A stretch of DNA of 11,189 bases, taken from positions 1 to 11,189 of the forward strand of contig PIVQ01000178.1 of the NCBI GenBank assembly GCA_003354055.1. The letters are read 5' to 3'. Origin of the DNA: Desulfobacteraceae bacterium (GTDB taxonomy: Bacteria; Desulfobacterota; Desulfobacteria; Desulfobacterales; Desulfobacteraceae). Under the pieces are notes generated by a model. The model was not told the origin of the DNA. It saw nothing but the letters and a program-made list of their open reading frames with translations, and searched no databases. This document shows, one piece after another, positions 1 to 11,189 of this stretch. How positions within the stretch are numbered: the stretch's first letter is position 1; every line of letters starts with the position of its first letter. A program made the position numbers and the translations under genes.

Positions 1-663
1 CAGACCGCCCTGGATGCATTCGGTACCATCGATATCCTCATTAACAATGCCGGAATTCTGCGGGACAAAAGCTTTACCAAAATGTCCGCCGACAACTGGC
101 AGGCGGTTTTGGATGTCCATCTAAACGGGGCTTACAATGTCTCCAAACCGGCCTTTCAAATTATGAAAGACAAGGGCTACGGCAGAATCATCCTCACCGC
201 GTCGGCAGCCGGACTTTACGGCAATTTCGGTCAGACCAACTATTCCGCAGCCAAACTGGCCCTGACAGGTCTTATGAATTCTTTAAAACTGGAAGGGGCA
301 AAGTACAATATACGGGTTAACACGGTGGCCCCTCTGGCTGCCTCCAGACTTACCGAAGATGTTCTGCCGCCCGATCTCTTTGAAAAACTTGCCCCTGAAT
401 TTGTTTCCCCCATGACCCTGCTGCTCTGTTCGGAAGAATGCCCGGTCACCGGCAACATTTATAATGTGGGTGCAGGCTGCTTTAACCGGGCTGCTGTGGT
501 TACGGGACCCGGTGCCGTGATTGGTAACGGTAAGGATATACCAGCCCCGGAGGATGTGTTCGCGGGCATGGAAAAGATCTCGTCCATGGAAGGCGCCAGA
601 CCCTATGACCAGCTCAATGATCTGGTCGGTGACGTCATGGCGCAGTTTACCCCGGACAAATAG
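1..663 (+). CDS. SDR-family 3-hydroxyacyl-CoA dehydrogenase, MFE-2/HSD17B4 type (5' partial)
   Basis: The reading frame is open from base 1, so the gene starts upstream; 220 codons are visible before TAG at 661-663. The N-terminal Rossmann glycine motif is cut off, but the rest of a classical short-chain dehydrogenase is present: NNAG followed by GILRDKSF, the Ser of TASAAG (codon 202-204), and the catalytic Tyr and Lys of NYSAAK (241-243 and 253-255). GILRDKSF and the downstream ASRLTED segment are typical of the dehydrogenase domain of peroxisomal multifunctional enzyme 2, which oxidises (3R)-hydroxyacyl-CoA with NAD+. By hand alignment about two thirds of some 170 residues match the SDR domain of the next gene, so the two are paralogues; this copy has no SCP2 tail. 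The next gene begins 21 nt downstream. Likely role: the 3-hydroxyacyl-CoA dehydrogenation step of beta-oxidation, possibly in a mixed oligomer with the fused SDR. Substrate unknown. Confidence 0.88.
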   Translation, partial: QTALDAFGTIDILINNAGILRDKSFTKMSADNWQAVLDVHLNGAYNVSKPAFQIMKDKGYGRIILTASAAGLYGNFGQTNYSAAKLALTGLMNSLKLEGAKYNIRVNTVAPLAASRLTEDVLPPDLFEKLAPEFVSPMTLLLCSEECPVTGNIYNVGAGCFNRAAVVTGPGAVIGNGKDIPAPEDVFAGMEKISSMEGARPYDQLNDLVGDVMAQFTPDK

Positions 664-684
664 ACTTAAGGAGGAAATCTTAAA

Positions 685-3435
685 ATGATAGGTATTACTT
701 CATACGGTGCATATATTCCGCGATTGAGACTAAGCAGATCTTCCATTGTCCAGGCCATGGGCTGGTTTGCACCGGCCATCATGGCCGTGGCCCAGGGGGA
801 GCGCTCCCTGTGCAATTGGGACGAAGACACCCTGACCATGGCGGTTGCCGCGGCCAGGGACTGCCTGACCGGCATGAGCAAGGAAGATCTGGACGGCCTG
901 TATCTTGCCTCAACAACCCTGCCCTTTGCCGACCGCCAGAACGCAGGGGTGGTGGCAGCTGCCCTGAACCTGAAAGAGAATCTCATCTCCACTGATTTTA
1001 CATCCTCCCAGAAGGTCTCCACCACGGCCTTGATTACCGCCCTGGAAGCGGTACAGGGCGGGAGCCGGAAAAATATAATGGTGGCGGCCACAGATAAAAG
1101 AGATACAAAGGCGGCCTATTTCTATGAAATGTGGTTTGGTGACGGGGCAGCCGCTTTAAGTGTCGGTGATGAAAACGTCATTGCCGAGTATCTGGGGTCC
1201 TACTCCATCTCGGCAGACTTCGCAGACCACTACAGGGGCTCGCTAAATGATTTTGATTACTATTGGGAAGAGCGGTGGAGCAGGAACGAAGGCTACGGTA
1301 AAATTTTGCCAAAGGCCATCAACGGGCTCTTTGACAAGCTGAACATCACCATGGACGATGTGGATACCCTGGTCTACCCCTGCTTTTTTGCGGGGGATCA
1401 TAAAAAGATCGCAAGAAAGCTTGGGGCTACCCCTGAAAAGCTGGTCGACAATCTTCACGAAGTCTGCGGGGAAACCGGTACGGCTCACCCCTTTGTGATG
1501 CTGGTATCCGCCCTGGAAAAGGCTAAGTCCGGGGACCGCATCCTTTTGGCCGGCTACGGACAGGGTGCCAATGCCCTTTACTTTAAAGTGACGGACAATA
1601 TTAAAAATATGGCCCCCCGCAAGGGATTTACCGGCCATATTGAAAATAAAAAGCCCCTGGATAACTACAACAAGTCTCTGAAATTCCGAGACCTGATGAA
1701 AACCGAGATGGGCATCCGGGCCGAAGCTCCCACCCAGACCGCCATGACCGTGCTATACCGGAAAAACAAGATGATTCTGGGGCTTGTCGGGGGGAAATGT
1801 ACCCAGTGTGATACCCCCCAGTTTCCCAAGATGGATATCTGTGTGAATCCCGAATGCGGAGCGGTTTACACCCAGGAAGACTATGAATTTGCCGATATTC
1901 CGGCCCGGATCAAAACATTTACCGCAGACATGCTCTCGGTGTCCGTGGATCCGCCGGCCATGTATGGGATGATCCAGTTTGAAGGGGGCGGCAGGTTTAA
2001 TGCCGACTTTACGGACTGTTCCCAGGATGAGATCCGGGTGGGACTGCCCGTGAGCCTGGAGTTCAAGCGTAAAAGTGTGGACAGTGAGCGGGGCATGGTC
2101 AATTACTTCTGGAAGGCAGTTCCTGTACCGGGTGCTGCTAACCGGCCCGCCGACCTGGATTTCAAGGGGCGCACCGCCATTGTGACAGGAGCCGGTGCCG
2201 GTTTGGGCAGGATCTATGCTCTGGAGCTTGCCAAACGGGGCGCCTCGGTTGTGGTCAATGACCTTGGCGGTGCCAGGGACGGATCAGGTTCCGGTTCATC
2301 TTCCCCTGCTGCAGCAGTGGTGGAGGAGATTGAAGCTGCAGGCGGCAAAGCCGTGGCCAATTTTGACAATGTGGCCACTAAAGAGGGGGGCGAAAATATT
2401 GTTAAGACCGCCATGGATACATTCGGCAGTGTGGATATCCTGATCAACAACGCAGGGATCTTAAGAGACAAAAGTTTTCTGAAAATGGAACCTGAGAACT
2501 GGTCAGCCGTTCTGGATGTCCACCTGAACGGATCCTATCACGTGACCCGTCATGCCTTCCCCATTATGAAGGAGAGAGGATTCGGCAGGATTATCATGAC
2601 CACTTCGGCTGCAGGGCTTTACGGCAACTTCGGCCAGACCAACTATTCGGCCGCCAAAATGGGAATCGTCGGCCTGATGAATACCCTGAAAATCGAAGGG
2701 GCCAAGTACAATATCAAGACCAATACAGTGGCCCCCATGGCCGCCTCCAGGCTGACCGAAGATATCCTTCCCCCAAATCTTTTAGAGCAGATGAAACCTG
2801 AGTTTGTGGCACCCCTGGTGCTGTATCTTGCCTCAGACCTGTGCGCCGAGAGCGGGGCCATCCTCAATGCAGGCATGGGATATTATAACAGGGCCGCAGT
2901 GGTCACAGGACCCACAACTCAGCTGGGTGAAGGCAAGATTCCGCCCACACCCGAGATGATCCTGGAAAACTGGGACAGAATCAACACCCTGGACGGGGCC
3001 CAGGAGTTCCCCGATATCAATGCCGCTCTGGGCGCTATTCTCAACCCGCCGGCGCCAGGTTCGGGCCAACAAGAAACATCTGCTGAACGTTCTGAGTCCG
3101 GCGGTGGCAGTGATGTCAGCCTGGAAGAGATCTTCAACCAGATGGGGGAAAACTTTGATCCGGATGCCGCCTCAGGTGTGGATGTGATTTTCCAGTTCAA
3201 TATTGCGGGTGCAGGCGGCGGGGATTATGCCTGTGTGATACGAAATCAGACCTGTGAAATCGACAAGGGGCAGCACGGAAGCCCGGGGTGTACCCTGAAG
3301 ATGGAAGCCTGCGATTTTACACAGATGATGGAAGGTTCCCTGCCACCTATGCAGGCCTACACATCGGGCAAGTTGATTATCGAAGGGGATATCATGAAAT
3401 CCCAACTCATCGAAAAGCTGTTTAAGATCAGTTAA
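685..3435 (+). CDS. Four-domain fusion: HMG-CoA-synthase-like / DUF35 Zn-ribbon-OB / MFE-2-type SDR / SCP2
   Basis: The protein has 916 residues; ATG follows GGAGG with good spacing. Residues 1 to about 320 look like the archaeal/bacterial HMG-CoA synthase (thiolase) fold, opening with GITSYGAYIPR. Against the remembered family pattern, the active-site Glu, Cys and His positions hold Thr77, Ser107 and Pro232, so this part is probably non-catalytic. Residues about 335-480 form a DUF35 domain: a zinc ribbon with Cys372, Cys375, Cys386 and Cys391, then an OB fold. Residues about 490-787 are a complete SDR of MFE-2 type: TGAGAGLG at 501-508, NNAG at 588-591, catalytic Ser641, Tyr654 and Lys658. 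A Pro/Gly/Ser-rich linker (788-812) leads to an SCP2 sterol-carrier domain (813-916) ending in the typical GKLIIEGD segment. DUF35 proteins are known partners of this kind of thiolase, and a thiolase gene follows 10 nt later. Inferred role: a cytoplasmic scaffold and dehydrogenase that binds the acyl-CoA and passes the 3-oxoacyl product to the thiolase. The MFE-2 hydratase domain is absent. The frame is continuous and no internal ribosome site or start was seen at the domain joints, arguing against an artefactual fusion. Confidence 0.9.
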   Translation: MIGITSYGAYIPRLRLSRSSIVQAMGWFAPAIMAVAQGERSLCNWDEDTLTMAVAAARDCLTGMSKEDLDGLYLASTTLPFADRQNAGVVAAALNLKENLISTDFTSSQKVSTTALITALEAVQGGSRKNIMVAATDKRDTKAAYFYEMWFGDGAAALSVGDENVIAEYLGSYSISADFADHYRGSLNDFDYYWEERWSRNEGYGKILPKAINGLFDKLNITMDDVDTLVYPCFFAGDHKKIARKLGATPEKLVDNLHEVCGETGTAHPFVMLVSALEKAKSGDRILLAGYGQGANALYFKVTDNIKNMAPRKGFTGHIENKKPLDNYNKSLKFRDLMKTEMGIRAEAPTQTAMTVLYRKNKMILGLVGGKCTQCDTPQFPKMDICVNPECGAVYTQEDYEFADIPARIKTFTADMLSVSVDPPAMYGMIQFEGGGRFNADFTDCSQDEIRVGLPVSLEFKRKSVDSERGMVNYFWKAVPVPGAANRPADLDFKGRTAIVTGAGAGLGRIYALELAKRGASVVVNDLGGARDGSGSGSSSPAAAVVEEIEAAGGKAVANFDNVATKEGGENIVKTAMDTFGSVDILINNAGILRDKSFLKMEPENWSAVLDVHLNGSYHVTRHAFPIMKERGFGRIIMTTSAAGLYGNFGQTNYSAAKMGIVGLMNTLKIEGAKYNIKTNTVAPMAASRLTEDILPPNLLEQMKPEFVAPLVLYLASDLCAESGAILNAGMGYYNRAAVVTGPTTQLGEGKIPPTPEMILENWDRINTLDGAQEFPDINAALGAILNPPAPGSGQQETSAERSESGGGSDVSLEEIFNQMGENFDPDAASGVDVIFQFNIAGAGGGDYACVIRNQTCEIDKGQHGSPGCTLKMEACDFTQMMEGSLPPMQAYTSGKLIIEGDIMKSQLIEKLFKIS

Positions 3436-3445
3436 GGAGGCTGCC

Positions 3446-4657
3446 ATGGCCAAAGGAATAAAAGATAAAGTTGCAATTCTCGGTATGGGATGTACGAAAT
3501 TCGGCGAGCGGTGGGATGTGGGGTCGGAAGAACTTATGGTGGAAGCCTTTATGGAATGCCTGGCCGATGCCGGCATCGAAAAAAAAGAGATTGGGGCGGC
3601 CTGGTTCGGTACCTGTTTTGACGAAGGGGGCGTTGGCAAGAGTGCCCTGTCACTGTCCACCACCCTGCGGCTGCCCTTTATCCCGGCGACGAGAGTGGAA
3701 AACTATTGTGCCACCGGCAGTGAAGCCTTCAGGGGGGCCTGCTATGCCGTGGCCTCCGGGGCCTACGATATCTGCCTGGCCCTTGGTGTGGAAAAGCTCA
3801 AGGACACGGGGTTCGGCGGACTGCCCAGTTTCACCGGCTCAAACTCCGGCAGCCTGAATTGGCAATGGTATCCCAATATGACGGCACCGGGCAGCTTTGC
3901 CCAACTGGCCCCGGCTTACGGGGCCAAGTACCGTGTGGATGACAAGGATATCAAACGGGCCATGGCCCATATTTCCACCAAGAGCCATGCCAACGGGGTG
4001 AAAAATCCCAAGGCCCATTTACAGAAAGAAGTCACCATTGAACAGGTGATGAATTCACCCATAATTGCACATCCTCTTGGGCTTTTCGACTGCTGTGGGG
4101 TCAGTGACGGAGCTGCCTGCGCCATTGTCACAACTCCCGAGATCGCCAAAAAACTCGGCAAGACCGATGTGGTGTCGGTCAAGGCCCTTCAGCTCTCATT
4201 GAGTTCCGGCGAGGAAATGGGCTTTAACGACTGGGATGGGGATCATTTCATGACCACCACCCGGTGCTCTACCCAGGCCTATAAGGAGGCCGGTATCACC
4301 AATCCCAGAAAGGAGATCTCCATGATGGAGGTCCATGACTGCTTTTCCATCACCGAGCTTGTGACCATGGAAGACCTTCATATCTCCGAACGGGGCCGGG
4401 CAGTTCATGACGTCCTGGAGGGGGTCTACGACCATGACGGCCAGGTGCCCTGCCAGGTGGACGGCGGGCTGAAATGTTTCGGCCATCCTATCGGCGCCTC
4501 CGGCCTGCGCATGCTCTATGAGATGTATCTCCAGCTCAACGGAAGGGCGGGCGAGCGGCAGCTTGATGATCCGCAATTGGGTCTGACCCATAACCTGGGG
4601 GGATTTCCCAGTGCTAATGTTTGCAGTATTTCCATTGTGGGCAAATACGGGGACTGA
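3446..4657 (+). CDS. Thiolase (acetyl-CoA C-acyltransferase), SCP-x/archaeal type
   Basis: 403 residues, a normal length for the SCP-x-like thiolase family. The ribosome site AAGGAGG overlaps the TAA stop of the preceding fusion gene and sits 5 nt before ATG, so translation is probably coupled. Catalytic features visible: nucleophilic Cys88 in the context NYCATGSEA, His297 in HDCF, and Cys344/His347 in KCFGHPIGASG, followed by a C-terminal NLGG loop. The enzyme would cleave 3-oxoacyl-CoA with CoA to acetyl- or propionyl-CoA plus a shortened acyl-CoA. Thiolases of this branch (archaeal acetoacetyl-CoA thiolase, BbsB of anaerobic toluene degradation, steroid side-chain aldolases) work with a DUF35 zinc-ribbon protein. 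Here that partner is the DUF35 section of the gene just upstream. The family is certain; the chain specificity is not. SCP-x thiolases accept 2-methyl-branched substrates, which would fit the racemase-like gene in the cluster. Confidence 0.92.
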   Translation: MAKGIKDKVAILGMGCTKFGERWDVGSEELMVEAFMECLADAGIEKKEIGAAWFGTCFDEGGVGKSALSLSTTLRLPFIPATRVENYCATGSEAFRGACYAVASGAYDICLALGVEKLKDTGFGGLPSFTGSNSGSLNWQWYPNMTAPGSFAQLAPAYGAKYRVDDKDIKRAMAHISTKSHANGVKNPKAHLQKEVTIEQVMNSPIIAHPLGLFDCCGVSDGAACAIVTTPEIAKKLGKTDVVSVKALQLSLSSGEEMGFNDWDGDHFMTTTRCSTQAYKEAGITNPRKEISMMEVHDCFSITELVTMEDLHISERGRAVHDVLEGVYDHDGQVPCQVDGGLKCFGHPIGASGLRMLYEMYLQLNGRAGERQLDDPQLGLTHNLGGFPSANVCSISIVGKYGD

Positions 4658-4807: not shown

Positions 4808-6496
4808 ATGATTTTAGCATCCAGGGATACCATCAACCATTACATGGAAACCGGGGTCTATTCAGACCTGACACTTATGGATCGACTGGCCGTTCATGTG
4901 GAAAATAACCCTGACAGGATTTGTATTGCAGACCCGCCCAATCGCAAGGATTTGAACGGGATTGAACCGGAGCGCCTTACCTATGAGAAGTTTCAATCCG
5001 CCATAGATGCCACGGCCCATGGACTTGTGAAGCTGGGGCTTGAAAAGGATGATGTGGTCATGGTTCAGCTTCCCAACACCTGGGAACTTGCCATGCTGTA
5101 CTTTGCCGTTTCCAAAGCCGGAGGTATCATTTCTCCGGCCCCTGTACTGTGGCGGGAGGCAGAGCTCGGGTATATTGCAGGCTTGACCGAGGCAAAGTTC
5201 TTTATTACTCTGGATACGTTCAATAAATTCAACCATTTTGAGATGGGAAAGAGACTGGCAGAAGAACATCCCCGGCTCACCCATGTGCTGAATCTTAGGG
5301 ATGTCCGGAAAATGAGTTCCGAGGCGTCAGATGCCCGCCGGGATCTCACCCGTCGGGCTCTTACCAGCCTCGACCACATCCGGGTCGATGCGAACGATAT
5401 CTTTACCATCTGCTGGACATCCGGTACCGAGGCCAATCCCAAGGGCTGCCCTTTGAGCCACAACAATTGGGCGGGGATGGCAGCTGTCCAGGACGCCGCA
5501 GGAATGAAGGCCGGGGATGTGATGCTTACGGCAGGTCCCCTGGTGAATATGGCATCGGTGGGAACGGTATTTATTCCCTGGACGGTTTTAGGCGGGACCC
5601 TGATTCTTCACCATCCCTTTGATCCTAATGCCTTTATGCATCAGATCATGACGGAAAAACCAAATTACACCCTTCTGGTGCCGGCCCTGGCCAATATGCT
5701 TGCCAAGCACCCGTCGGTGGATCAGTTTGACTTGAGTTCCTTTCGGACCATTACCCTGGGATCAGCACCGCCCTCTCTCTGGACTATGCAGGAGTTCAAG
5801 AAACGTTGGGACATCGATATCGGTAATATCTGGGGTCAGAATGAAGGCACAGGGTTTATCTCCGGTATCGAAGATGTGCCCAATATGGAGATCCGGGCCA
5901 CCTCCTTTCCCCATTACGGGAAAAAAGGGGTGGCCTGGAAAACCGTTGCCTCCAAACATATCATTGCCAAACTGGTGGATCCCATGGACAAAGAAGTCAC
6001 CGAAATCGGAAAGGTGGGGGAACTGGTTTACAAGGGCCCGGGCGTAATTGCCGGATATTACAAGGCCCCGGATATCACTAAAACCAGTTTTACCGATGAT
6101 GGATTTTTCAGGAGCGGTGATATTTTCAGAGTCGAAGAAAACGATTGTATCTCATTTTATGAACGGGCCAAGGACATCATCATCCGGGGTGGTTACAATA
6201 TCAGCTCCCAGGAAATCGAGAACTATCTTGTGGCCCATCCCAAGGTTCAGGATCTGGCAGTGGTCGGTATGCCTGATGAGAAGCTGGGTGAGAAAATGTG
6301 TGTGTATGCCGTACCGGCACAGGAGGTGACCCTTGTTCTGGATGACCTGGTTTCCTTTTTAGAGGACAACGGGGTGGCCAGGTACAAGCATCCGGAACGT
6401 ATGGAAATCGTTGATGTTATCCCCAGAAACCCTGTGGGCAAGGTGCTGAAAAAAACGTTGAGACAGGATATAATATCAAAATTGGAAATGGAGTAA
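4808..6496 (+). CDS. AMP-forming acyl-CoA ligase (ANL superfamily, DhbE-like)
   Basis: 562 residues, usual for the family. It activates a carboxylic acid with ATP to an acyl-adenylate and then to acyl-CoA. Visible core motifs: the phosphate-binding loop TSGTEANPKG at 204-213, the adenine/aromatic motif WGQNEGTG at 342-349, ribose-binding Asp438 in RSGD, the hinge ERAKD at 452-456 followed by IIRGGYNISSQEIE, and the C-terminal catalytic Lys545 in NPVGKVLKK. The C-terminal part (PERMEIVDVIPRNPVGK) recalls the 2,3-dihydroxybenzoate/cyclohexane- and aryl-acid ligase branch, so cyclic or aromatic acids are possible as well as fatty acids. ATG follows a G-rich ribosome site. The gene opens the second block of the cluster after the 150-nt hairpin-bearing gap, and its stop is adjacent to the start of the next gene. 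Within the cluster it is the most obvious entry step, feeding the dehydrogenases downstream. Confidence 0.92.
   Translation: MILASRDTINHYMETGVYSDLTLMDRLAVHVENNPDRICIADPPNRKDLNGIEPERLTYEKFQSAIDATAHGLVKLGLEKDDVVMVQLPNTWELAMLYFAVSKAGGIISPAPVLWREAELGYIAGLTEAKFFITLDTFNKFNHFEMGKRLAEEHPRLTHVLNLRDVRKMSSEASDARRDLTRRALTSLDHIRVDANDIFTICWTSGTEANPKGCPLSHNNWAGMAAVQDAAGMKAGDVMLTAGPLVNMASVGTVFIPWTVLGGTLILHHPFDPNAFMHQIMTEKPNYTLLVPALANMLAKHPSVDQFDLSSFRTITLGSAPPSLWTMQEFKKRWDIDIGNIWGQNEGTGFISGIEDVPNMEIRATSFPHYGKKGVAWKTVASKHIIAKLVDPMDKEVTEIGKVGELVYKGPGVIAGYYKAPDITKTSFTDDGFFRSGDIFRVEENDCISFYERAKDIIIRGGYNISSQEIENYLVAHPKVQDLAVVGMPDEKLGEKMCVYAVPAQEVTLVLDDLVSFLEDNGVARYKHPERMEIVDVIPRNPVGKVLKKTLRQDIISKLEME
6490..6493 (+). 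promoter_or_regulatory. Ribosome site for the first ACAD, favouring ATG at 6500 over GTG at 6497
   Basis: GGAG lies at 6490-6493 within the last codons of the ligase gene. It is 6 nt before ATG 6500 but only 3 nt before GTG 6497, so the ATG is the better start. The stop codon of the ligase (6494-6496) lies between, which suggests translational coupling. Confidence 0.5.
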
Positions 6497-6499
6497 GTG

Positions 6500-7648
6500 A
6501 TGACCCTTGAATTGAACAAATCTCAAAAGCAGATTCAAAAGGCAGCCTGGGAATTCGCCCGGGGTGAATTTGATAAGGATGAGATTCTGGAGCTGGAAAA
6601 GGCAGGTGTATTTCCACAAAAAATCTGGGAAAAAGCCGCAGACTTAGGATTTATCGGGCTCCACTTTGAAGAGGACTATTCCGGAGGCGGCCTAGGAGTC
6701 TTTGACACCCTGCTGACGGCTGAGGCCTTTTGCAGAAAGGATTCCTCCTGCGGCATGGCCCTTACGCTCGCGGGATTTGCCGGTGAACTTATCATGGCGG
6801 CCGGTACCCCGGATCAAAAGCAGCGGTATCTTGAGCCCGTGGCCCTGGGGAAAACCCTTTGCGGGGGCGCTTTTTTCGAACCTGAATCCGGGTATGAGTT
6901 GTCCTCTATCCGCACTCGTGCGGTTCAGGAAATGGGAATGTGGGTGATTACCGGTAAAAAGACCCGGGTGGTCAATGGAGAAGGAGCATACTTTTATCCG
7001 GTCCTCTGCGAAACAAAAGAGGGCCCCGGTCTGATCCTGGTGGAAAAAGAGGCACCGGGGCTGACCGTCATTCCCATGGCCAGGAAGCTTGGTAACACCA
7101 TGACCCCCTGGGCCGATCTTGAGTTCGACAGGGTAAAGGTGGGCCCGGATCAGTTTTTAAGTGTTCCCGGCAGAGGACTGGACCTGGTCGAAGGTTTTCT
7201 GGACCAGGCCCGGCTGCTCAACGCCGGTATGGCCTTAGGCATTGCCCAGGGTGCCATGGACAGAACCCTTTCCTATGCAAAAGAGCGGGAGCAGTTCGGA
7301 CGGAAAATTGCCTCTTTTCAGCATCTTCGTCACAAGATCGCGGACATGGCATTGAAAATTGAACTGGCCCGCGGCATTGCCTACGGGGCAGCGCAAGCTT
7401 GGGACAATAAAAATAAGGCACAGGTTCTGTCGGCCATGGCCATGGAATATGCCTGTGAGGCTGCCGAGGCCGTGGCGGATGAGGCGGTTCAGATCCACGG
7501 GGGGTACGGATATATGCACGAGGGAGAGGTGGAGCATTTTTACAGGGATGCCAAATTCTTAAGGCTGTTCTGCTCAAATCCTGTGGTGCGCAAGGATATC
7601 ATTGCCAAGGCCGCCATAGGTAAGCTGAAACCGGCAACCATCAAATAG
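6500..7648 (+). CDS. Acyl-CoA dehydrogenase family protein, probably non-catalytic subunit
   Basis: 382 residues from ATG 6500 (383 from GTG 6497), a standard ACAD length with the usual order of alpha, beta and alpha domains. The fold is clear from the FAD/tetramer motifs REQFGRKIASFQHLRHKIADM (broken here: REQFG at about residues 262-266) and IHGGYGY near residue 334. Two features are odd. The normal TEPxAGSD flavin motif in the middle domain reads FEPESGYE. The catalytic glutamate is missing at both positions used in the family: the C-terminal site reads LFCSNP with Cys358 where YEGT is usual, and the helix-G site used by isovaleryl- and long-chain ACADs reads LDQARL with Ala237. It probably either pairs with the next gene product as a structural and flavin-binding subunit or has a changed reaction. 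It starts 3 nt after the ligase stop and ends 10 nt before the second ACAD gene. Confidence 0.88.
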   Translation: MTLELNKSQKQIQKAAWEFARGEFDKDEILELEKAGVFPQKIWEKAADLGFIGLHFEEDYSGGGLGVFDTLLTAEAFCRKDSSCGMALTLAGFAGELIMAAGTPDQKQRYLEPVALGKTLCGGAFFEPESGYELSSIRTRAVQEMGMWVITGKKTRVVNGEGAYFYPVLCETKEGPGLILVEKEAPGLTVIPMARKLGNTMTPWADLEFDRVKVGPDQFLSVPGRGLDLVEGFLDQARLLNAGMALGIAQGAMDRTLSYAKEREQFGRKIASFQHLRHKIADMALKIELARGIAYGAAQAWDNKNKAQVLSAMAMEYACEAAEAVADEAVQIHGGYGYMHEGEVEHFYRDAKFLRLFCSNPVVRKDIIAKAAIGKLKPATIK

Positions 7649-7658
7649 GGGAAGGGAT

Positions 7659-8801
7659 ATGGAGATATTAAAATTTACTGAAGACCATCATGCCTATAGA
7701 GATCGCCTGGTATCCTTTCTGGCAGAGGAAGTGGTGCCCCTGATTGATGAATGCGAGGCCGCGCATCTCACTCCCAGATCGATGTGGCAGGCCATGGGGA
7801 AAAACGGATTTCTCTGCCCCTGGCTGGAAAAGGAATACGGGGGACCGGGCCTTGATTTACTCTACTCAATGATTGTCTGGGAAGAGATGGCGGCAATCAA
7901 TTTTACAGGGCTTGCCGCAGGGTTGCACAGTGATATTGTGGTACCCTATATTCATTCCTTCGCCAGTGAGGCCTTAAAACAGGCCTACCTGCCGGGATGC
8001 GCATCAGGGCAGATTATCACGGCCGTGGCCATGACCGAATCCTCCGCCGGATCTGATGTAGCCTCCATGGAAACCACGGCGGTTACCCGGGGCGATGAGA
8101 TCATTTTAAACGGGTCAAAGACCTTTATTTCCAACGGCGTCAATTGCGACCTGGTGGTTCTGGCGGCCCGGAATCCCGACATCGAAGACCGGCACAAGGC
8201 TATCTCCCTTTATCTGGTGGAGGACGGAACTCCAGGGTTTTCTAAAGGCACCCCCTTTGAGAAGATGGGATGGGCCAGTCAGGACACAACGGAACTTTTC
8301 TTTTCCGATTGTAAAATTCCCGTTTCCAACCGTCTGGGTAATGAAGGCGACGGCTTTCTCATGCTCATGCAGAAACTCCAGCAGGAACGCCTGGTCTGCG
8401 CCGCAGGCGGGGTGTTTGGTGCCCGGGCTATGCTGGACCACACCCTGGACTTTTGCAAAACCCGGACACAGGCGGGCAAGCCTATGAGCAAACACCAGTC
8501 AGTTCAGTTTGCCCTGGTGGAAATGGCCACGGAGGTGGAGATTCTTAATACCTATGCCCACACCCTGATCCGGGATCATATGGAGGGCCGGCAGATCATC
8601 AAAGAGACTTCCATGGCCAAATACAAGATGACGGAATTGTCAAAACGCATCGCTTCCAAATGCCTGGATATTATGGGTAGTGAGGCTGCCCTGGAAAGCC
8701 ACGATCTGCCGCGGATGTTCAGGGATGCCCGGGTCACGACCATCTTTGCCGGTACCAATGAGATCATGAAGTCTATTATTGCCAAAACTCTTGGATTGTA
8801 A
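7659..8801 (+). CDS. Acyl-CoA dehydrogenase, long-chain/isovaleryl-type active site
   Basis: 380 residues. It oxidises acyl-CoA to trans-2-enoyl-CoA with FAD, passing electrons to electron-transfer flavoprotein. The canonical flavin/substrate motif TESSAGSDVASM is intact in the middle domain. At the C-terminal position the usual YEGTNEI reads FAGTNEI with Ala364, but Glu243 is present in QQERLV. That is the helix-G position that supplies the catalytic base in isovaleryl-CoA and long-chain acyl-CoA dehydrogenases, so this subunit should be active, with a pocket shaped for branched or long chains. The ribosome site GGGAAGGG precedes ATG at close spacing. It is directly downstream of the ACAD lacking a catalytic Glu, and the two may form a heteromeric enzyme as the paired FadE/ChsE proteins of mycobacterial steroid degradation do. 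No electron-transfer flavoprotein genes are in the window. Confidence 0.92.
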   Translation: MEILKFTEDHHAYRDRLVSFLAEEVVPLIDECEAAHLTPRSMWQAMGKNGFLCPWLEKEYGGPGLDLLYSMIVWEEMAAINFTGLAAGLHSDIVVPYIHSFASEALKQAYLPGCASGQIITAVAMTESSAGSDVASMETTAVTRGDEIILNGSKTFISNGVNCDLVVLAARNPDIEDRHKAISLYLVEDGTPGFSKGTPFEKMGWASQDTTELFFSDCKIPVSNRLGNEGDGFLMLMQKLQQERLVCAAGGVFGARAMLDHTLDFCKTRTQAGKPMSKHQSVQFALVEMATEVEILNTYAHTLIRDHMEGRQIIKETSMAKYKMTELSKRIASKCLDIMGSEAALESHDLPRMFRDARVTTIFAGTNEIMKSIIAKTLGL

Positions 8802-8816
8802 ATAAAGGAGAAAACC

Positions 8817-9260
8817 ATGTCATCATCCATGACAGAGCTTAAGGATCTGGTGGAAAACAAGTTTGATTTTTTAAGGAATATGGGGTTGAAAATTTTGGCC
8901 TTGGCCCCTGGCGAGGTCAAACTTATGCTGCCGAAGAAGGGGAATGAAAATCATCTGGGCACGGTCTTTGCCGGTGCCCTGTTTACCCTGGCCGAGGTAC
9001 CGGGAGGTGTCCTGGCCTATACCACCTTTGATGCTGCACGTTTTTATCCTGTGGTCAAAGAGATGAATATTAAATTTGTCCGGCCGGCCACAACAGATGT
9101 GACGGTAGAGAGTGTCATGAGCCAGGCGGAATCAGACCGCCTGGCACAAGAGGCTGAAGAGACGGGAAAAGCCTCCTTTACCCTGGACGGGGAAATTCTG
9201 GATGCCAACGGGAAGGTGGTGGCAAAAACCCAGGGCTTTTATCAATTGCGGAAATATTGA
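8817..9260 (+). CDS. Hotdog-fold acyl-CoA thioesterase-like protein (PaaI/YiiD_C/DUF4442 group)
   Basis: 147 residues, a single hotdog domain. The central helix region reads NHLGTVFAGALFTLAEVPGG, the pattern of PaaI/DUF4442-like thioesterases, and is followed by strand segments such as NIKFVRPATTDVTVE and a C-terminal KTQGFYQLRKY. Members hydrolyse acyl-CoA to the acid and free CoA; many are uncharacterised. AGGAG sits about 6 nt before the chosen ATG; a second ATG four codons later is possible but less well placed. In a degradative operon it may release CoA from dead-end or accumulating intermediates. Alternatively the hotdog fold could serve another acyl-CoA function, since hydratases share it, but it lacks the MaoC hydratase signature I would expect. 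No catalytic residue can be assigned with certainty. Confidence 0.75.
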   Translation: MSSSMTELKDLVENKFDFLRNMGLKILALAPGEVKLMLPKKGNENHLGTVFAGALFTLAEVPGGVLAYTTFDAARFYPVVKEMNIKFVRPATTDVTVESVMSQAESDRLAQEAEETGKASFTLDGEILDANGKVVAKTQGFYQLRKY

Positions 9261-9284: not shown

Positions 9285-10469
9285 ATGGAAAAACCACTGA
9301 GAAACCCGGTGGGAAATCAAATGCTGGCACAGGGCGCGTTAACCGGAATCAAGGTTCTGGATCTTTCCCGCCTGCTTCCGGGGCCCTTTTGCTCCATGAT
9401 TCTGGCAGACCACGGGGCGGATGTCCTTGCCATTGAAGACGGTACAAAACAGGGGCAAGAGATCTTTTTCAACGGGGTAAACCGGAATAAAAGGCATATG
9501 TCCCTGAATTTGAAAACCGAAACGGGCAGGCATATTTTCTTTAAACTGGTAAAGGATGCCGACGTGATTCTGGAAGGGTTTCGGCCCGGAGTGGTAAAGC
9601 GTTTGGGCGTGGATTACGAGAGCGTAAAAGCTGTGAACCCGGGTATCATTTACTGCGCCATCACCGGATTCGGCCAGACAGGTCCTATGAAGGACCGGGT
9701 GGGCCATGATGTGAATTTTCTGTCCGAAGCTGGCATTCTGGATCTGATGGGGAATCCGGATCAGCCCCCATCTATTCCCGGTGTCCAGATCGCAGATATT
9801 GCCGGCGGTGCCATGAACGGGGCCATCGGAATTCTCCTGGCCCTGGTGGCCAGGAACACCACCGGCAAAGGTCAGTATATTGACATCTCCATGACCGATG
9901 GGGTGGCAGGTTTTATGATTCTTCCCCATTTTTTTTCCCAGCTCTTCGGACAGGTTCAGCAGCGCTCCAAAACCATGCTCTCCCACCGGTATGCCTGTTA
10001 CAATACCTATGAAACCGCAGATAAGCGCTACCTGGCCCTGGGTGCTGTGGAGGCGGTTTTCTGGCAGCGGCTGTGTACCCTTTTAGGTGCCCCCGAGTTC
10101 ATCCCTCTCCAATATGACGAGAATAGACGAGCCGAGATTATTTCCTGGCTTAAAGATGTGTTTTTGGGCCATACGGCGGAGCATTGGCAGGAGGTTCTGG
10201 GTGACGCAGATGTCTGCTGCTCCATCGTCAAAACACTGGAGGAGGCCATGACAGGAGATCTCTTCAGAGAGCGGGAGATGGTAGTGGAACTGCCCTCGGG
10301 CAACGGAATCCCTGTCACTACATTCGGCGTGCCGGTGAAACTCAGCCATACCCCGGGAAAGGTCAGGACACCGCCGGAAGACTTCGGCCAAAGTACGGCA
10401 GATATTCTTAAGGGACTGGGATACTCCCCGGAAGAGATTAACAAATTCAAACAGGACAAAATTATATAA
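9285..10469 (+). CDS. CaiB/BaiF (family III) protein, likely alpha-methylacyl-CoA racemase
   Basis: 394 residues, one CaiB/BaiF domain. It opens with GIKVLDLSRLLPGPFCSMILADHGADV, the usual start of the family (broken here: VLDLSRLLPGPFC near residue 25). It carries the FRPG arginine motif at Arg100, GHDVNF with His141 and Asp142, and IADIAGG with Asp171. In alpha-methylacyl-CoA racemases (human AMACR, mycobacterial MCR with His126 and Asp156) the catalytic pair is a His of GHD and an Asp 30 residues later, and the same 30-residue spacing is seen here. CoA transferases of the family use the Asp next to this His as nucleophile, so a transferase remains possible. Only one gene is present, unlike the two-subunit BbsEF transferase, and an ATP-dependent ligase is already encoded. 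Racemisation of 2-methylacyl-CoA is therefore the favoured role. GGAGG is well placed before ATG. Confidence 0.87.
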   Translation: MEKPLRNPVGNQMLAQGALTGIKVLDLSRLLPGPFCSMILADHGADVLAIEDGTKQGQEIFFNGVNRNKRHMSLNLKTETGRHIFFKLVKDADVILEGFRPGVVKRLGVDYESVKAVNPGIIYCAITGFGQTGPMKDRVGHDVNFLSEAGILDLMGNPDQPPSIPGVQIADIAGGAMNGAIGILLALVARNTTGKGQYIDISMTDGVAGFMILPHFFSQLFGQVQQRSKTMLSHRYACYNTYETADKRYLALGAVEAVFWQRLCTLLGAPEFIPLQYDENRRAEIISWLKDVFLGHTAEHWQEVLGDADVCCSIVKTLEEAMTGDLFREREMVVELPSGNGIPVTTFGVPVKLSHTPGKVRTPPEDFGQSTADILKGLGYSPEEINKFKQDKII

Positions 10470-10479
10470 GGAGGAAGAG

Positions 10480-11189
10480 ATGACCCATGTGATTGCCGAC
10501 AGGCGGGATATTGATTTTGTACTGTATGATCAGTTCCGGATTCATGAGCTTTGCGAGCTTCCCAAATATGAAGACTTCAACCGGAAAACCTTTGACATGA
10601 TCATCTCCGAGGCCCGTAAACTGGCCATTAAGGAGATTACGCCCACCTTGGCAGAGGGAGACCGTGAGGGCGCTTCCTTTGACAACGGGAAGGTAAGGGT
10701 TCCCAAATGTTTCAGGCGGCCTTACAAACTCTTTGTTGAAGGGGAGTGGACCGCCATGACAGCTGATCCCGAACTGGGAGGCCAGGGTCTGCCGACTGTG
10801 ATCGCCCAAGCCGCATCCGAATATCTGTCCGGGGCAAATTATGCCTTTGGCTTTTACGGATTTGAGGGCCATGCCGCAGGAAGGATGATCGAGGTGTTCG
10901 GCACTGATCTTCAAAAAGAACTTTTTTTAAAGAAAATGTATACCGGTGTCTGGGGCGGCACCATGGATCTTACCGAACCCTCCGCGGGGTCTGATGTAGG
11001 AGCCTTGACCACCACAGCGGTGAAAAATGAGGACGGCACCTATTCCATCACCGGCAGCAAGATTTTCATCACCTCCGGGGATCACGATCTTACAGAAAAT
11101 ATCATCCACCCTGTTTTGGCCAGGATAGAAGGAGCTCCGGTCGGTACCAAGGGGATTTCCCTGTTCATCGTTCCCAAGATCTGGGTCAA
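10480..11189 (+). CDS. Large acyl-CoA dehydrogenase, DmdC/FadE5-like (3' partial)
   Basis: The frame is open from ATG 10480, behind AAGGAGG, to the right edge: 236 complete codons of a protein whose family is about 600 residues long. The N-terminus begins MTHVIADRRDIDFVLYDQF, the extension typical of the large ACAD subfamily that includes 3-methylmercaptopropionyl-CoA dehydrogenase (DmdC) and FadE5-like enzymes. The middle domain starts with the flavin motif LTEPSAGSDVGAL near residues 164-176 and GSKIFITSGDHDL. The catalytic Glu and C-terminal domain lie outside the window. The start is 10 nt after the racemase-like gene, so it belongs to the same operon. It is a third and quite different ACAD in the cluster, perhaps acting in a later round or on a shorter product of the same pathway. 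Substrate cannot be assigned. Confidence 0.88.
   Translation, partial: MTHVIADRRDIDFVLYDQFRIHELCELPKYEDFNRKTFDMIISEARKLAIKEITPTLAEGDREGASFDNGKVRVPKCFRRPYKLFVEGEWTAMTADPELGGQGLPTVIAQAASEYLSGANYAFGFYGFEGHAAGRMIEVFGTDLQKELFLKKMYTGVWGGTMDLTEPSAGSDVGALTTTAVKNEDGTYSITGSKIFITSGDHDLTENIIHPVLARIEGAPVGTKGISLFIVPKIWV

What the first reader, a model, noticed from the sequence alone, without database searches (positions are those of the whole stretch)
685..4657. Fused HMGCS-like/DUF35/SDR/SCP2 protein beside its thiolase: a possible substrate-channelling complex
In archaea, thiolase, DUF35 protein and HMG-CoA synthase form one complex that passes the intermediate through a shared CoA site. Here the HMGCS-like and DUF35 parts are one polypeptide, extended by an MFE-2-type dehydrogenase and an SCP2 domain, with the matching thiolase 10 nt downstream. 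This would join 3-hydroxyacyl-CoA oxidation and thiolytic cleavage in one assembly. The domain order is read from the sequence; the complex is inferred.
Basis: partly seen in the sequence, partly recalled or inferred. Interest (0 to 1): 0.75.

Follow-up and report, generated by a model that had tools for sequence, protein, structure and literature searches.

The report
Dehydrogenase fused to thiolase-binding scaffold
A widespread protein of sulfate-reducing and related bacteria joins a fat-burning dehydrogenase, like the one in our peroxisomes, to a scaffold that probably holds the next enzyme of the pathway, so two successive steps of fatty-acid breakdown may run in one assembly.

Summary
Window 685-3435 encodes one 916-aa protein (HMGCS-like / zinc-ribbon+OB DUF35 / MFE-2-type SDR / SCP2), and its thiolase starts 10 nt later. 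It is no assembly error: the frame is open in two complete Desulfosarcina chromosomes and many other Desulfobacterota. The interpretation needs changing. (1) The HMGCS-like part lacks all three catalytic residues (Glu to Thr, Cys to Gln/Leu, His to Pro; 240 homologs), much as PhlA of PhlACB lacks two, so an archaeal-type hand-over to an HMG-CoA synthase is not expected. The conserved unit is MFE-2 / fusion / thiolase. (3) The scaffold-thiolase pair is commoner, and probably older, than the fusion: of 78 related thiolases in 297 genomes of the phylum, 74 directly follow an HMGCS-like-DUF35 gene and 4 lie at contig ends. Best reading: a dead HMGCS-like fold plus DUF35 holds a catalytic thiolase, with the preceding beta-oxidation enzyme grafted on. 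Contact with the thiolase, channelling, direction and substrate were not tested. New variant of a known kind.

The parts
1..663 (+). C-terminal 220 aa (SDR) of the upstream MFE-2-type protein; its N-terminal hydratase-2 would lie outside the window
   Evidence: orthologs in L001 and L002 (92 and 94% identical) are whole; the L001 one is MFE-2_hydrat-2_N + MaoC + SDR, 588 aa
669..674 (+). Shine-Dalgarno-like AGGAGG of the fusion gene
   Evidence: read
685..3435 (+). fusion protein, 916 aa, 98.7 kDa
685..1704 (+). HMGCS-like domain (residues 1-340), catalytic Glu/Cys/His replaced by T77/Q109/P232
1747..2145 (+). DUF35: zinc ribbon (C372, C375, C386, C391 invariant) and OB fold, residues about 355-487
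2152..3042 (+). MFE-2-type (3R)-hydroxyacyl-CoA dehydrogenase (SDR), residues 490-786, N589/S641/Y654/K658 and D526
3121..3432 (+). SCP2 domain, residues about 813-916
   Evidence: (PF02036, 48.7 bits)
3433..3440 (+). TAAGGAGG: stop codon of the fusion overlapping the Shine-Dalgarno-like site of the thiolase
3446..4657 (+). thiolase, 403 aa, NCBIfam PRK06157 (699 bits, cut-off 403); C88, H297-D-C299, H347
4808..6496 (+). acyl-CoA ligase (AMP-binding)
6497..8801 (+). two acyl-CoA dehydrogenases (6497-7648, 7659-8801)
8817..9260 (+). hot-dog thioesterase
9285..10469 (+). CoA-transferase family III, nearest solved relatives are alpha-methylacyl-CoA racemases (GHDxN motif)
10480..11187 (+). third acyl-CoA dehydrogenase, cut by the window end

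Best explanation
The 916-aa protein is a scaffold-plus-dehydrogenase subunit of a bacterial beta-oxidation complex. Its N-terminal half, a catalytically dead HMGCS-like fold joined to DUF35, holds a catalytic thiolase in a PhlACB-like assembly. Its C-terminal half supplies the (3R)-3-hydroxyacyl-CoA dehydrogenase and an SCP2 lipid-binding domain, so the 3-ketoacyl-CoA is made next to the thiolase that cleaves it. The gene just upstream supplies hydratase-2 plus a second, paralogous SDR(-SCP2). SHOWN: domains, loss of HMGCS catalytic residues, intact SDR and thiolase residues, conserved gene order, overlap of stop codon and Shine-Dalgarno-like site, kinship of the two SDR tails. INFERRED: DUF35-thiolase contact (homology), coupling of the two steps, the catabolic direction, and substrates that are bulky or 2-methyl-branched acyl-CoAs (peroxisome-like gene set).
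Against: No contact between fusion and thiolase was predicted or measured here; the thiolase model failed (pLDDT 40) and no multimer tool was at hand. No natural fusion of the scaffold with the thiolase was seen among the best 120. Inter-domain placement in the fusion model is uncertain (pTM 0.61, weak linkers 343-353 and 792-808). Of 77 scaffold genes that I checked in the phylum sample, 64 lack the SDR, so the SDR is not needed for the scaffold-thiolase pair. An AMACR-like gene was seen in only 17 of 56 loci with room, and the thiolase's best solved relatives are 7yvy and the archaeal 6esq_A, ahead of SCP2-thiolases, so the peroxisome-like, branched-chain reading is weakly supported.
Confidence: 0.66

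Rival explanations
1. Archaeal-type complex: the HMGCS part is active and receives acetoacetyl-CoA from the thiolase through a shared CoA site.
For: Best fold match is the archaeal HMGCS of that complex and the gene partners are the same kinds.
Against: Glu, Cys and His of the active site are absent in the 240 homologs examined (one gap at the Cys column), and the two archaeal-type HMGCS models score below their cut-offs.
Confidence: 0.03
2. Biosynthetic complex: the thiolase works as an acyl- or ketoacyl-synthesising enzyme as in PhlACB, and the SDR reduces the product.
For: PhlACB, the nearest dead-HMGCS complex, is an acyltransferase; SDR dehydrogenases of this kind are reversible (recalled).
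Against: Neighbours are an acyl-CoA ligase, acyl-CoA dehydrogenases and a hydratase-2 protein, the layout of a degradation pathway. No expression data were seen.
Confidence: 0.12
3. Gene neighbours without a lasting complex: the fusion and the thiolase are only co-expressed; DUF35 only binds acyl-CoA or steadies the fusion.
For: No contact was predicted here; the thiolase model failed; no fusion of scaffold and thiolase was seen.
Against: Reciprocal adjacency (74 of 78, and 73 of 77 the other way) across a phylum sample, and binding of DUF35 to thiolase-fold partners in PhlACB, Shy-Sal, Ltp2-ChsH2 and the archaeal complex.
Confidence: 0.13
4. The thiolase-fold partner is a retro-aldolase, as Sal or Ltp2, and not a thiolase.
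For: Sal and Ltp2 are DUF35-bound relatives.
Against: The thiolase Cys and His residues are invariant and the motif is HDCF where Sal has YDCY, the NCBIfam hit is a thiolase well above cut-off, and a dehydrogenase, not a hydratase, is tethered.
Confidence: 0.04

Closest known systems
PhlACB (PpATase) acyltransferase of Pseudomonas protegens (PDB 5m3k, 5mg5)
   Same: HMGCS-like subunit without the Cys and Glu, DUF35 subunit that joins it to a thiolase-fold catalytic subunit
   Different: Three separate proteins there; here the first two are one chain with an added SDR and SCP2, in a beta-oxidation gene set
Archaeal acetoacetyl-CoA thiolase/DUF35/HMG-CoA synthase complex (PDB 6esq)
   Same: Same three partner folds; closest fold match of the N-terminal domain
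   Different: HMGCS active there; all three catalytic residues lost here; no SDR or SCP2 there
Shy-Sal and ChsH1-ChsH2-Ltp2 steroid hydratase-aldolase complexes
   Same: DUF35 is covalently fused to an enzyme of the preceding step and binds the thiolase-fold C-C cleaving enzyme
   Different: There a MaoC hydratase and a retro-aldolase; here an SDR dehydrogenase and, by its residues, a true thiolase, plus a dead HMGCS-like domain
Peroxisomal MFE-2 (D-bifunctional protein, HSD17B4) with SCPx thiolase and AMACR
   Same: MFE-2 dehydrogenase (50% identical to rat), hydratase-2 upstream, SCP2 domains, a thiolase with the HDCF motif (label recalled), AMACR-like gene
   Different: Hydratase-2 precedes the SDR in the bacterial protein, a second SDR-SCP2 is fused to HMGCS-like-DUF35, and SCP2 is not on the thiolase
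Benzoylsuccinyl-CoA thiolase BbsAB
   Same: BbsB (PDB 7pxp_C, from a complex with DUF35) is a relative of the thiolase by sequence
   Different: No HMGCS-like domain and no fused dehydrogenase there (recalled)

Membership tests
Archaeal-type thiolase/DUF35/HMGCS complex | HMGCS active site with Glu, Cys and His | tested here: not met
   T77, Q109 (or L), P232; 0 Glu, 0 Cys, 0 His in 240 homologs, one gap
Archaeal-type thiolase/DUF35/HMGCS complex | thiolase gene partnered with DUF35 and HMGCS-like genes | tested here: met
Archaeal-type thiolase/DUF35/HMGCS complex | shared CoA site and passage of the intermediate | not testable with these tools
   needs a structure of the complex
PhlACB-like dead-HMGCS scaffold complex | HMGCS-like fold without the catalytic Cys and Glu | tested here: met
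PhlACB-like dead-HMGCS scaffold complex | DUF35 with zinc ribbon and OB fold | tested here: met
   PF01796 27.3 bits against 27.1; zinc cysteines invariant in 116; PF12172 is below its cut-off in the window protein
PhlACB-like dead-HMGCS scaffold complex | physical A-B-C assembly | not testable with these tools
   no multimer prediction or experiment
PhlACB-like dead-HMGCS scaffold complex | Friedel-Crafts acyltransferase activity | not tested
   gene neighbours suggest otherwise
Shy-Sal type tethered complex | DUF35 covalently fused to the enzyme of the preceding step | tested here: met
   DUF35-SDR in one chain, short linker about 480-490; that the SDR acts just before the thiolase is inferred
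Shy-Sal type tethered complex | partner is a retro-aldolase | tested here: not met
   by residues only: thiolase Cys/His and HDCF in 59 of 59, where Sal has YDCY; activity not assayed
MFE-2 (D-bifunctional protein) | SDR (3R)-hydroxyacyl-CoA dehydrogenase with N-S-Y-K | tested here: met
MFE-2 (D-bifunctional protein) | hydratase-2 in the same chain | tested here: not met
   absent from the fusion; present in the upstream protein in 67 of 69 loci (Pfam on 3)
MFE-2 (D-bifunctional protein) | SCP2 domain | tested here: met
   PF02036 48.7 bits

The most novel reading that the evidence does not exclude
The two paralogous proteins pair through their MFE-2-type SDR domains, so that hydratase-2, two dehydrogenases, SCP2 lipid carriers, a dead-HMGCS/DUF35 scaffold and the thiolase form one assembly: an anaerobic, FadAB-unrelated, peroxisome-like trifunctional beta-oxidation machine in which an inactive synthase fold serves as the thiolase dock.
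Probability: 0.25. Interest if true: 0.75.

Novelty: new variant of a known kind. Interest (0 to 1): 0.52.

Why it matters
It would extend the DUF35 principle (tether the preceding enzyme to a thiolase-fold C-C cleaver) from hydratase-aldolase pairs to the dehydrogenase-thiolase pair of beta-oxidation. It shows that a protein named a 3-hydroxy-3-methylglutaryl CoA synthase in some public records has no synthase site in a large bacterial family, and it gives a simple system, two adjacent genes in named Desulfosarcina strains, for testing whether fusing successive enzymes gives channelling. 3-hydroxyacyl-CoA oxidation is unfavourable and is pulled by thiolysis, which would make coupling useful to anaerobes living on small energy yields (established biochemistry, recalled; the link to this complex is inference).

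Tried and rejected
Missed stop or chimeric assembly: rejected, since complete chromosomes and many independent assemblies have the open frame. Active HMG-CoA synthase: rejected on residues.

Natural scaffold-thiolase fusion (Rosetta stone): 1298 matches at E <= 1e-50; in the best 120, all that was seen, the query is covered to at most 58% and no thiolase domain stands in the Pfam column.

SDR heterodimer signature: the helix that I took for an SDR dimer interface (alpha-E) is slightly more alike in cognate pairs than in matched pairs (0.737 against 0.709, 12 of 2000 draws reach it), but two helices not chosen as interface show as much or more (540-551: 5 of 2000; 566-580: 2 of 2000), and alpha-F, also chosen, does not (524 of 2000) (first look). 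So it gives no support to an interface; gene conversion is a simpler cause. The helix assignments are mine, from the model and recall.

SCP2 in at least one of the two proteins in 51 of 51 pairs (36 both, 11 fusion only, 4 MFE only): about 0.9 pairs with none would be expected by independence, so this is not evidence.

Thiolase structure prediction from 37 sequences failed (pLDDT 40) and was not used. Repeats in window 1-3435 of 40 bases or more: none. Promoter and terminator scan gave consensus matches above the shuffled mean (17 against 8.5; 21 against 13.7), but I drew nothing from it.

Literature: searches listed no paper that, as far as titles, abstract starts and term counts show, describes this fusion; most subscription papers are not in the library. 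The archaeal complex paper is not held; what I say of it comes from passages in PMC6392133 and PMC12329534. PMC5109826 (passages) and PMC8084838 (passages) did not bear on it.
Full report
WHAT IS THERE. The window is a row of + strand genes: the C-terminal 220 aa of an SDR protein (1-663), the 916-aa fusion (685-3435), a 403-aa thiolase (3446-4657), an acyl-CoA ligase, two acyl-CoA dehydrogenases, a hot-dog thioesterase, a CoA-transferase family III protein and a third, cut acyl-CoA dehydrogenase. The fusion has a Shine-Dalgarno-like AGGAGG, and its stop codon is part of the thiolase's (TAAGGAGG), which suggests coupled translation (inference). No whole genome is held for the window; its nearest relatives are Desulfobacteraceae and Desulfobacterales metagenome assemblies (89-90% identity).

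THE SYNTHASE SITE IS GONE. In the HMMER alignment to 6esq_I the Glu column is T77, the Cys column Q109 and the His column P232 (which columns are catalytic is recalled; for Cys and Glu it agrees with PMC6392133). Over 240 homologs (the best 120 listed in each of two searches, so not a random sample) position 77 is T in 239 and K in 1, position 109 is Q in 176, L in 58, M, V or I in 5 and a gap in 1, and position 232 is P in 240. PhlA likewise has Gly for the Cys and Cys for the Glu, and PhlA and PhlB are thought to be needed for assembly rather than for acyl transfer (PMC6392133, passages). The thiolase is equipped: C88, H297, C299 and H347 in 59 of 59 relatives (those over 350 aa that follow a scaffold gene in the loci); so is the SDR: N589, S641, Y654 and K658 in 70 of 70 fusion domains and 70 of 70 MFE domains.

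CONSERVED UNIT. The genome scan found 99 relatives and kept 80 loci. Of 81 HMGCS-like ORFs in them, 60 are HMGCS-DUF35-SDR-SCP2, 12 lack SCP2 (several cut by contig ends), 8 are HMGCS-DUF35 alone or cut, and 1 is a short piece. Where there is room, a thiolase follows within 600 nt in 53 of 54 fusions (gaps 3-294 nt over the 60 fusions with one) and an MFE-type SDR gene precedes in 57 of 58; the one exception to both is L014, whose gene lies between runs of 100 N. The preceding protein has a hydratase-2 region in 67 of 69 cases (the other two are a cut and a short ORF) and was shown by Pfam in the three tested to be hydratase-2 / MaoC / SDR, with SCP2 in two of the three. So the unit is MFE-2, fusion, thiolase.

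COMMONER PAIR, RARER FUSION. In 297 genomes of the phylum of D. alkanivorans (evenly drawn; at most 3 matches a genome were scored, so counts are lower bounds) 13 carry the fusion over at least residues 1-786, and in these 13 the thiolase lies within 400 nt downstream. The scaffold without the SDR is commoner: 64 of the 77 scaffold genes over 1 kb that I checked. Of 78 thiolase places at 60% identity or more to the window's thiolase (partial ones included), 74 lie within 400 nt downstream of an HMGCS-like-DUF35 gene and the other 4 are at contig ends. In reverse, 73 of the 77 scaffold genes have such a thiolase; of the other 4, two have an adjacent thiolase just under the 60% limit, one lies at a contig start, and one, G061:C68, is unexplained. 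About 31 lower-scoring scaffold rows were left out of this count. Unfused pairs with the MFE-2 gene still upstream exist (L077, L078, L080), as do scaffold-SCP2 proteins without an SDR (6 of the 120 listed, by their Pfam columns). That the pair is older than the fusion is inferred from this spread.

ORIGIN OF THE SDR TAIL. Cognate fusion and MFE SDR domains are 61-87% identical in 60 pairs. In a tree of 95 SDR domains (45 of the 59 loci with both, three unfused loci and the window) the labels need at least 6 changes (3 forced by well-supported branches; shuffled mean 32): mostly two clades, but in one group of eight loci (L029, L031, L037, L038, L046, L049, L051, L052) fusion and MFE domains branch together. 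I read this as one old duplication of the SDR(-SCP2) tail with some later conversion; repeated origin is not excluded, and the direction is inferred from the unfused forms, not from a rooted tree.

HOW IT PROBABLY WORKS. DUF35 domains bind thiolase-fold enzymes in PhlACB, in the archaeal complex, in ChsH2-Ltp2 and in Shy-Sal; in Shy-Sal the DUF35 is fused to the hydratase, the enzyme of the step before, and the DUF35 alone co-purifies with Sal (PMC12329534, passages; PMC11321319, abstract and outline). Here DUF35 is fused to the dehydrogenase, which would be the step before thiolysis. The simplest mechanism is that the dead HMGCS fold and DUF35 dock the thiolase while SDR and SCP2 deliver 3-ketoacyl-CoA beside it. 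Whether the intermediate is channelled is open: for Shy-Sal the authors judged the flexible linkage inconsistent with direct channelling. With four of each chain, as in PhlACB, the assembly would be about 570 kDa (98.7 and 43.3 kDa; stoichiometry by analogy only).

PATHWAY. SCPx alone cleaves the 3-keto esters of pristanic acid and the bile-acid precursors in human peroxisomes, MFE-2 does the two steps before, and a racemase converts the 2R-methyl esters (PMC4729952, passages). The window holds likely bacterial counterparts: an MFE-2 tail, a thiolase with the HDCF motif of SCP2-type thiolases (label recalled), SCP2 and a CoA-transferase III protein whose nearest solved relatives are alpha-methylacyl-CoA racemases. 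Against it: the thiolase's best solved relatives by sequence are 7yvy and the archaeal 6esq_A, with an SCP2-thiolase fourth; and while the 19 CaiB-family genes found in the loci have GHDxN, only 17 of 56 loci with room have one, and 36 of 56 have an acyl-CoA dehydrogenase like the window's. A branched or bulky substrate is therefore a guess, not a result.

LIMITS. Contact with the thiolase, channelling, direction and substrate are untested. The thiolase model failed. The test for an SDR-SDR interface signal gave nothing specific, so the bold reading of one large assembly rests on kinship and gene order only.

Noticed in passing
window 1009-1011 (residue Q109 of the fusion): The Cys position of the dead synthase site is Gln in most homologs (176 of 240), the same change as in KSQ-type decarboxylating ketosynthases (recalled), but the His is Pro here, so a decarboxylase is unlikely; D83, P232 and C233 are nonetheless invariant in 116 sequences, as if the pocket still had a use.
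   Followed up: partly
window 9285-10469: CoA-transferase III protein nearest to alpha-methylacyl-CoA racemases among solved structures, with GHDxN; NCBIfam gives CoA-transferase and one isomerase model, all below cut-off.
   Followed up: partly
L079:2979-5655 and L079:10036-12447: An Abyssobacteria contig carries two HMGCS-like-DUF35 / thiolase pairs 4.4 kb apart, both unfused to an SDR.
   Followed up: no
G001:C1:4185117-4187771: Desulfosarcina alkanivorans has a second, unfused HMGCS-like-DUF35 / thiolase pair about 30 kb from the fusion (45% and 67% identical).
   Followed up: no
L081:585-5752: CaiB-like ORF with GHDIN (by eye), unfused scaffold, thiolase (NCBIfam) and a MaoC-like ORF (by eye) in a row, a simpler relative of the window's unit.
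   Followed up: no
P0130, P0145, P0147, P0159, P0171, P0184: Scaffold proteins with SCP2 but no SDR in their Pfam columns: domains are added in different combinations.
   Followed up: no
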